Assembly (NCBI RefSeq): GCF_026745355.1 | Contig: NC_079209.1 | Coordinates: 4,076,507 to 4,140,506 of the forward strand | Origin: Beta vulgaris subsp. vulgaris | Taxonomy: Eukaryota > Streptophyta > Magnoliopsida > Caryophyllales > Amaranthaceae | Length of the DNA: 64,000 bases | Reading direction: 5' to 3' | In this document: one piece after another, positions 39,744 to 41,877 of the stretch | Numbering within the stretch: position 1 is the stretch's first letter | Layout of the letters: every line of letters starts with the position of its first letter | Notes under the pieces: generated by a model | Told to the model about the DNA's origin: nothing | The model's database searches: none | What the model saw: the letters and a program-made list of their open reading frames with translations, nothing else | Made by a program: the position numbers and the translations under genes

Positions 39744-40389
39744 GTTAGTTAGTTTGTGTTAACTTCTCTGCCAAAGGTAAACAAAATAAAGCCCATTGCA
39801 TAATCAAATCCCATTTCTTGATTTAAGCATACAAATGACTTTCATTGTTATTATTGAGCCCATTAAACAATTACGCTAATAATAATACTGTAAATCAATA
39901 ATTAATAAAGTGCCCAGAATAGATTAAGCCCCAATTAAACCTTGGGGCCAGAATAAACAAGAAAGCCCTCGATAAACACTTATTATAATCCCATCCCATC
40001 CCATCAATGCTTGTAAAAAGAAGCCCAATCATTCAATCAACAGCTCCTGCTAATGTTATGTTATGTGATTAGTATGAGCCAAGATAACTAAACTGTTATC
40101 CTCTAAATTACAAACAAATCCCTCTAACATTACGTACTGTACTACATAAACAAAGCCATAAAATTAGATGAAGGAAACATACATTTGCAATATACTTACA
40201 ATTTTTACAAAGTTGAAACTTGAAAGAGTAGTAAATTACCTGAAAAACCAAACGAAAAAGAGCGACTTTTGGACTTTGAAGAGACTAGAAAGGCGATTTT
40301 TAGGGTTTTGTTTCGTTGGACTCTTTCCCTTCCTTCTAATACGAAGTAAGACTCATTAGTATTTTTTTATCAGTATTTTCCTTCTTATT

Positions 40390-40572
40390 CAGGGCCGTAT
40401 TTGGATATGGGCGAGAGGGGCAGTTGCCCAGGGCCCCAAAACATTTCGGACCAAAAAATTATTTATTTTTTGGTCTAGACCGAAAAATTAAACATTCAAA
40501 AAACTTAGACTTAATCAGGGCCCTACTATGTAGGCTCGCCTTTGGGCTTCCAAAATCTCAGAAACGGGGCTG
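40390..40572. mobile_element. hAT-type MITE copy 1 (183 bp)
   Basis: It starts CAGGGCCG and ends CGGGGCTG. It has the same length as copy 2 and about five differences from it (roughly 97 percent identity by eye). The flanking octamers differ from each other (TTCTTATT left, ATGATATA right), so it is not a simple insertion. Confidence 0.85.
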
Positions 40573-40946
40573 ATGATATAGAAGATTGGAACAGTTGGTA
40601 TGACATTTTTATCTTGGAGGCTGGTAGTAATTGGGTACTCAAACATGAAAATGTCATAACAAGTCGAAGTTTGAATTTTGATGAACAAGTTTTTGGTATA
40701 GATGGTTTGTATATTTTATCAAATTATGGAAGTTGTTTTACGCGAGATCCTTTGCCTTATCTATATCATTACAATGTTGTACGTGGGACTTCAAGAATTC
40801 TAAGAGTACCGCAAGATAGTGATGATCAAGATAATTTTGATATGAATACGTGTACTTTTCGGATATTTGGATGGGAGCGTAAGATGAGAGATTGTGTGTT
40901 CGAGTCTATTTGTCTAGTTAAGTTTTTTCGATCGGATTCTTCATAA
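40573..40946 (+). pseudogene. F-box protein, C-terminal part (displaced upstream)
   Basis: The frame reads from the ATGATATA octamer: DIEDWNSWYDIF..WVLKHENVITSR..LPYLYHYNVVRGTSRIL and ends at a TAA at 40944-40946. No start codon belongs to it; the apparent ATG at 40542 is inside the MITE. The content is like the C-terminal part of plant F-box proteins with an associated interaction domain. Its N-terminal half lies 160 bases downstream at 41108-41644. Confidence 0.65.
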
Positions 40947-41107
40947 ATTATATATAGTTTATGATCAGAAGTCAGAACCTTATACTTACATACGTCAAAT
41001 ATTTAGGTTCAATAATAATACTCACCTTTCCTCCTCTCACTTGTTCTCAGTTTTTAGCTTCTTCTCGCCATAATACTCCTTCACTCGTACGAATCATCAA
41101 CATAACC

Positions 41108-41644
41108 ATGTCTTTTAATGGAGAGTTATTCGAAATTATGTCATGGTTACCTGTAAAAACTTTACATAGATTATCAACCATGACAAAAATCTGCAAAGAT
41201 ATTCTATCCGAACCCTACTTTACGGAGAAACAATGTCAAAATTCGTGCTCGAAAACCGATGAGTGCTTGATTATAGAAGAAGATTCAGGCCTAAATACAA
41301 AGGTTAGAAAACTACAATTTTCTTTCTTATCCAAACCACAATCTTACAATGGCATCCCAAAAAATCCCTTAAGTTCTTAGTGAAAAAAGGTCGAATTTTG
41401 GCATCAAAGAATGGGTTAATCTTAAGTAGAACTATAAACTCCAAAAAAACCAACCGAATTATTTCTGTGCAACCCTGCAACAAGAACTTGGTCGACTATT
41501 AAGTTGCCTAACAAGGAATTAGCAAGGAGATATCAAATTGATGGAAGTTTAAATATTACGTTGGTATGTGGTAATGCATGTAATAAACAAAATATTAAGT
41601 TTCCATTAGACTATACTCTTTTGATGTTTACCATACATGATATA
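41108..41644 (+). pseudogene. F-box protein, N-terminal part (displaced downstream, frameshifted)
   Basis: The ATG at 41108 starts MSFNGELFEIMSWLPVKTLH, then KICKDILSEPYFTEKQC, an F-box motif as in plant SCF-type F-box proteins (substrate receptors binding SKP1). The frame then breaks near an A-run at about 41352 (CCCAAAAAATCCC) and again near 41465. It recovers as NPATRTWSTIKLPNKEL and IKFPLDYTLLMFTIHDI up to the octamer ATGATATA at 41637-41644. The two small frame breaks make it a pseudogene independent of the permutation. Confidence 0.7.
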
Positions 41645-41827
41645 CAGGGCCGTATTTGGATATGGGCGAGAGGGGCAGTTGCCCAGGGCCCCAAAACATT
41701 TCGGACCAAAAAATTGTTTATTTTTTGGTCTAGACCGAAAAATTAAACATTCAAAAAACTTGGATTTAATCAGGGCCCTACTATGTAGGCTCGCCCTTGG
41801 GCCTCCAAAATCTCAGAAACGGGGCTG
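41645..41827. mobile_element. hAT-type MITE copy 2 (183 bp)
   Basis: Same termini and length as copy 1. The left flank is ATGATATA and the right flank TTCTTATT, the mirror of copy 1. Confidence 0.85.
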
Positions 41828-41877
41828 TTCTTATTAGGATGAAAATGATTTTTACTTAATGAGAATTTGATCTATCT

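What the first reader, a model, noticed from the sequence alone, without database searches (positions are those of the whole stretch)
40382..41835. Circularly permuted F-box gene between two MITEs: footprint of a circular (or tandem-derived) gene copy
Seen: outer flanks are the same octamer TTCTTATT, inner flanks the same octamer ATGATATA. The F-box gene between is split exactly at ATGATATA, with its C-terminal half first and its N-terminal half second, and the two ends rejoin in frame. A simple insertion or linear duplication does not give this. Two models fit: (a) an extrachromosomal circle carrying the gene with the MITE recombined into a resident MITE at this site; (b) hAT transposase moved MITE-gene-MITE as one unit out of a tandem array. 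Either is a route for gene movement by short non-autonomous elements that I do not know to be well described.
Basis: partly seen in the sequence, partly recalled or inferred. Interest (0 to 1): 0.88.

Follow-up and report, generated by a model that had tools for sequence, protein, structure and literature searches.

The report
Dead gene moved by paired MITEs
A short stretch holding a broken plant gene, with its two halves in swapped order, was most likely cut out of a row of gene copies on the same chromosome by a jumping-gene enzyme that used the outer ends of two tiny transposons; it is a natural example of a process known from maize experiments.

Summary
Two direct 183-bp hAT-type MITEs (40390-40572, 41645-41827) enclose a permuted F-box-associated-like gene; outer flanks TTCTTATT, inner flanks ATGATATA. 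I found a source. A tandem array on the same contig, 6.8 Mb away (C11:10935302-10945820), has seven gene units, each with the same short MITE at ATGATATA and the same unit junction as the window. Three MITE-free relatives (C5 twice, C12) carry the gene in normal order with a single ATGATATA. The permutation is thus the register of a tandem array read from MITE to MITE. The short MITE is an internal-deletion form that I saw full-length only in the array (7) and the window (2), among the 40 of 410 candidates scored. Both window MITEs carry the array type at all five base markers and the deletion, which disfavours recombination of a circle with an unrelated resident MITE. Macrotransposition (a hAT transposase using the left end of one MITE and the right end of the next) explains everything in one step. 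The gene was already truncated and ended early in the array. Macrotransposition is known from maize Ac/Ds; here it is natural, made by MITEs and primed by tandem duplication. An empty TTCTTATT site in a relative is still needed.

The parts
40382..40389 (.). left copy of the outer 8-bp target-site duplication TTCTTATT
   Evidence: sequence
40390..40572 (+). left MITE, 183 bp, hAT-type ends CAGGGCCGT...ACGGGGCTG, array subtype
40573..40580 (.). ATGATATA, right-hand copy of the target duplication of the original MITE insertion in the gene
   Evidence: single copy in three MITE-free relatives
40573..40925 (+). C-terminal half of the gene, truncated at its 3' end at the array unit junction (end approximate)
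40917..40939 (+). unit junction (3' end of one gene unit joined to the 5' region of the next), shared with 6 of 6 array junctions apart from two variable bases
40930..41644 (+). 5' region and N-terminal half of the next gene unit (start approximate); frame from the F-box-like Met near 41108 stops after 90 residues
41637..41644 (.). ATGATATA, left-hand copy of the target duplication of the original MITE insertion
41645..41827 (+). right MITE, 183 bp, array subtype
41828..41835 (.). right copy of the outer 8-bp target-site duplication TTCTTATT

Best explanation
The 1,438-bp stretch 40390-41827 is a macrotransposon. Shown by comparison: a hAT-type MITE sits in an F-box-associated-like gene at ATGATATA on C11 near 10.94 Mb, and that MITE-bearing gene, truncated at its 3' end, stands there in seven tandem units of about 1.25 kb inside a segment that is otherwise colinear with MITE-free relatives. 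Inferred: while the array had at least two units, a hAT transposase acting in trans bound the left end of one unit's MITE and the right end of the next unit's MITE, cut out MITE-(C-half|N-half)-MITE as one element and inserted it 6.8 Mb away, making the 8-bp duplication TTCTTATT. The apparent circular permutation is the register of the tandem array read from MITE to MITE; no circle is needed.
For: Donor array with 7 of 7 MITEs flanked on both sides by ATGATATA; octamer-to-octamer spacings 1547, 1252, 2725, 1236, 1254, 1253 bp, the two long ones holding later insertions; window 1255 bp. Same unit junction in the window and in 6 of 6 array junctions, apart from two variable bases. Array flanks colinear with the MITE-free relatives on both sides, so it arose in place. 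Three of three relatives have a single ATGATATA in normal gene order. The short MITE was seen full-length only at 7 array and 2 window places among the 40 of 410 candidates scored; the 7 of 21 other family loci in which I found a 5' part are 508-1216 bp, and 4 of those 7 have perfect 8-bp duplications. Array MITEs differ from the family at positions 16, 17, 35, 100 and 137 and at the deletion; both window MITEs have the array state at all of them. Three of the left MITE's four private states (118, 152, 159) occur in 0 of 21 family copies and look like later mutations; the fourth (72) occurs in 3 of 21. The outer 8-bp duplication is what a hAT insertion of the whole unit leaves. The window copy ends early in the same region as all seven array N-halves.
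Against: No present array unit is an identical donor: the six inter-MITE array segments differ from the window's at 1.9-2.7 percent of sites. In a tree the array segments group apart from the window copy with weak support (75/83). At 10 of the 12 sites where two or more array segments share a derived state, the window keeps the ancestral one; at the other 2 it shares the derived state with 5 of 6 segments. This fits a move when the array was young, or later homogenisation of the array, but points to no donor pair, and would also fit a circle made at the start of amplification. No MITE-free unit or excision footprint was seen in the array. At position 166 the window MITEs have the state of the family and of 3 of 7 array MITEs, so it does not discriminate. 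3 of 7 longer family members with a 5' part show no matching duplication. No relative with an empty TTCTTATT site could be examined, and the left flank has no second copy found in this genome. No transposase was searched for.
Confidence: 0.83

Rival explanations
1. A circular DNA carrying one gene unit with its MITE (from the array or from the making of the array) recombined with a MITE already resident between TTCTTATT copies at the window site.
For: It gives the same outer and inner octamers and the same permutation. The window copy branches outside the array segments, weakly supported, as a circle made at the start of amplification would.
Against: A single crossover between an ordinary family member and the circle's MITE would leave one of the two MITEs without array markers. 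Both have all of them, from position 16 to 137, and the deletion. Gene conversion, or a resident of array type that had jumped earlier, could rescue the model at the cost of an extra event.
Confidence: 0.12
2. A larger piece (MITE-unit-MITE-unit-MITE or more) transposed and later shrank to one unit by unequal crossing over between its direct repeats.
For: A multi-unit array offers larger macrotransposons as well, and direct repeats contract (established knowledge). It would yield the same end product.
Against: An extra step with no trace in the window.
Confidence: 0.04
3. Assembly error or chance likeness.
For: Repeats and tandem arrays can be misassembled.
Against: The left flank is single-copy in this genome, the window segment has 4 bases seen in no array segment and no outgroup, and the outer octamer duplication is exact. 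The right flank was not tested.
Confidence: 0.01

Closest known systems
Ac/Ds macrotransposons of maize (Huang and Dooner 2008, not held here; passages read in PMC9910405, PMC3260210, PMC4270019)
   Same: Two closely linked hAT elements move together with the DNA between them by the outermost ends; an 8-bp duplication or its footprint marks the site.
   Different: Here both elements are 183-bp non-autonomous MITEs, the pair came from tandem duplication of one MITE-bearing gene (so the cargo is permuted), and the event was found in a genome, not seen in a genetic experiment.
Maize Ac composite insertions by re-replication (passages in PMC4270019)
   Same: Internal sequences switch their relative order, fuse at a new junction, and the whole is bordered by competent ends.
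   Different: There the new junction is made by the transposition event. Here it already exists in a tandem array.
TIME-COMP elements of Pseudomonas (abstract and passages of PMC4133298)
   Same: Two miniature elements mobilise the DNA between them like a composite transposon.
   Different: Bacterial Tn3-type elements with an unrelated transposase.
hATpin / hAT-derived MITEs of beet (Moreno-Vazquez 2005, Menzel 2012; seen only as references in PMC12804786)
   Same: Short hAT-type elements, described from beet.
   Different: Not compared by sequence here, so membership is open.

Membership tests
hAT-superfamily MITE | 8-bp target-site duplication | tested here: met
   The original insertion has ATGATATA on both sides with a single copy in 3 of 3 empty sites; 4 of 7 longer relatives with a 5' part have perfect 8-bp duplications, 3 of 7 do not
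hAT-superfamily MITE | short terminal inverted repeats of CAGGG type (motif recalled) | tested here: met
   Ends CAGGGCCGT and ACGGGGCTG; the inverted repeat is imperfect
hAT-superfamily MITE | mobilised by a related hAT transposase | not tested
   No transposase search was made
Macrotransposon | two elements in direct orientation enclosing cargo, with a matching target duplication outside the pair | tested here: met
Macrotransposon | donor locus with the same pair of elements around the same cargo | tested here: met
   Array on C11 with six MITE-gene-MITE segments, 1.9-2.7 percent different from the window's; two of them also hold later insertions
Macrotransposon | empty target site in a relative | not testable with these tools
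   No relatives are held for this genome; the left flank is single-copy in it
Circle integrated by recombination into a resident MITE | flanking MITEs that are reciprocal hybrids of resident and incoming sequence | tested here: not met
   Both MITEs are of array type at all diagnostic positions; a resident that was itself of array type would not show, so the model stays at 0.12
F-box protein gene | F-box or F-box-associated domain | tested here: inconclusive
   Pfam: no F-box or associated domain in the C5 protein, full length or cut short, or in two C9 relatives (one sub-threshold unrelated match). Homologues: one of 6 is named F-box associated; PF08268, PF03478 and PF24750 are each precomputed on one; P0001 matches PF03478 and PF24750 below their cut-offs

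The most novel reading that the evidence does not exclude
Tandem duplication of any gene that carries a MITE automatically builds a string of ready-made macrotransposons, so MITE-bearing tandem arrays act as launch pads that scatter circularly permuted, single-unit gene copies. Permuted gene copies in plant genomes would then be a readable record of this route, with no circular DNA intermediate.
Probability: 0.2. Interest if true: 0.7.

Novelty: new variant of a known kind. Interest (0 to 1): 0.45.

Why it matters
A donor array, MITE-free parental sites and the moved product all survive in one genome, so the order of steps can be read: MITE insertion, local amplification, then en-bloc movement. 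It suggests that very short non-autonomous elements can move gene-sized cargo in nature, and that a permuted copy need not mean a DNA circle. The cargo was a dead gene, so the event itself probably had little effect.

Tried and rejected
Circle recombined into an unrelated resident MITE: disfavoured by the marker pattern, kept at 0.12 for an array-type resident or gene conversion. A single donor pair among the present units: sought by shared derived sites and a tree, not found. A second copy of the left flank as an empty site: none found. The right flank: not completed. A whole-genome pattern search for the deletion junction of the short MITE, to turn 'seen only here' into a full count, did not complete; that claim rests on the 40 scored of 410 candidates and the 40 scored of 425. 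An F-box domain by Pfam: not found. Faulty or partial scripts: one search looked too short a distance upstream; mis-cut the array MITEs and left reverse-strand loci unturned; replace them. One search cut the reading frames of the relatives at the ends of its slices (380 and 326 aa), and searches used proteins cut short in the same way; searches give the full frames and repeat the Pfam test, while the homologue search was not repeated. The spacings printed used rounded starts; one search gives them from the octamers. The anchors missed two of the seven array units and the three relatives; those were read. Papers searched for earlier MITE macrotransposons: (for beet MITEs); I saw listings with titles and starts of abstracts, and passages of seven papers (one search showed only a reference). 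They showed no plant MITE case, but the library holds only open-licence papers and two key papers are not held.

Full report
What is there. ATGATATA | 183-bp MITE | TTCTTATT, over 40382-41835. The MITEs lie in direct orientation and differ at 5 of 183 positions: four private to the left copy (72, 118, 152, 159) and one to the right (121).

Where the window comes from. The window lies on contig C11 of a 569-Mb genome of 20 contigs. Nine contigs of 55.8-72.5 Mb, seen, add up to about 564 Mb, and named homologues of the parent protein are from Spinacia and Chenopodium.

The parents. Three relatives hold the gene in normal order without a MITE: C5:60596031-60597088, C5:60749095-60750212 (reverse strand) and C12:45453162-45454205. 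In 3 of 3 the permutation point is a single ATGATATA. The first C5 copy is one frame of 456 aa through that point, 407 aa from the F-box-like Met; the second C5 copy is a 408-aa frame; the C12 copy is split into two frames of 223 and 225 aa.

The donor array. At C11:10935302-10945820, 6.8 Mb from the window, lie seven gene units, each with a 181-183-bp MITE at ATGATATA. Octamer-to-octamer spacings are 1547, 1252, 2725, 1236, 1254 and 1253 bp; the two long ones hold later insertions of about 289 and 1,465 bp. The first unit keeps the natural upstream sequence and the last the natural downstream sequence, and both flanks are colinear with the C5 and C12 relatives, so the array grew in place. The junction between units joins a truncated 3' end to the 5' region of the next unit; the same junction stands in the window and in 6 of 6 array intervals, apart from two variable bases. 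The window's order is therefore one array interval, read from MITE to MITE.

Which model. They differ in where the two MITEs come from. Of 21 other family loci examined, 7 have a recognisable 5' part, with element lengths of 508-1216 bp, and 4 of those 7 have perfect 8-bp duplications; in 14 no 5' part was found within 1.5 kb. The short form joins the first 50 or so bases to the last 130. Among the 40 scored of 410 candidates it was full-length only at the seven array places and the two window places. All seven array MITEs differ from the family at positions 16 and 17 (7 of 7 family copies), 100 (21 of 21), 137 (20 of 21) and 35 (6 of 7), besides the deletion, and both window MITEs have the array state at every one of these; position 166 varies within the array and does not discriminate. 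A single crossover with an ordinary resident MITE would leave one of the two copies without these markers. A resident of array type, or gene conversion, is possible but costs an extra event. Macrotransposition needs only one.

When. The window segment has 5 private bases in 1051 ungapped columns, one of them equal to the outgroups; the six array segments have 4, 19, 14, 11, 10 and 16. The tree puts the array segments apart from the window copy with weak support (75/83). At 10 of the 12 sites where two or more array segments share a derived state the window keeps the ancestral one, and at 2 it shares the derived state with 5 of 6 segments. The move probably happened when the array was young; gene conversion in the array afterwards would look alike, and so would a circle made at the start. 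At a recalled plant rate near 7e-9 per site and year the private bases suggest about a million years or less; this is loose.

The cargo. All seven array N-halves and the window copy end early in the same region, and the unit lacks the parent's 3' coding end. The gene was dead before it moved. Pfam does not recognise the parent; among its 6 homologues found, one is named F-box associated and three others carry an F-box-associated, KIB-type or At3g26010-type propeller domain.

What is known. Passages read in PMC9910405, PMC3260210 and PMC4270019 describe macrotransposons: a Ds and an Ac that moved as much as 100 kb between them, and composite insertions whose parts are switched and fused and which are bordered by competent ends. 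PMC1562414 proposes en-bloc movement of two P elements as a source of a chimeric MITE. PMC4133298 reports miniature Tn3-type elements moving DNA between them in Pseudomonas. The listings, and the passages I opened, showed no plant case made by MITEs out of a tandem array; this is an absence from those searches of an open-licence library, not proof. I therefore class it as a new variant of a known kind.

What is shown and what is inferred. Shown: the structure, the donor array, the empty parental sites, the shared junction, and the array type of both MITEs. Inferred: that a hAT transposase did it, that it happened in one step, and that it was cut-and-paste. Not tested: the empty target site in relatives, the right flank's copy number, a full genome count of the short MITE, and the transposase.

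Noticed in passing
L009:7450-7739 (C11:10936450-10936739): A later insertion of about 289 bp inside an array unit has 74-bp direct repeats at its ends (at most 2 mismatches), like a very small LTR (TRIM-type) element; the type is recalled, not tested.
   Followed up: partly
L010:236-1701 (C11:10939136-10940601): A later insertion of about 1,465 bp inside another array unit, with a short direct repeat at its edges.
   Followed up: no
L011, L012, L013: The two C5 copies and the C12 copy lie in longer duplicated segments (several kb, pieces mostly 81-97 percent identical) that also match both flanks of the C11 array; what spread them is not known.
   Followed up: partly
L042-L045 (C9:25284000-25323999): An older cluster of diverged relatives of the same gene (pieces 70-83 percent identical), with long frames nearby that look retrotransposon-like by eye.
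   Followed up: no
window 40390-40572: All four private changes of the left MITE are C-to-T or G-to-A, as is the one of the right MITE, as expected from decay of methylated DNA.
   Followed up: no
L024 and L025 (C12:37.89 and 37.62 Mb): Two family members 270 kb apart share the same 14-base 3' flank, so they may lie in a segmental duplication.
   Followed up: no
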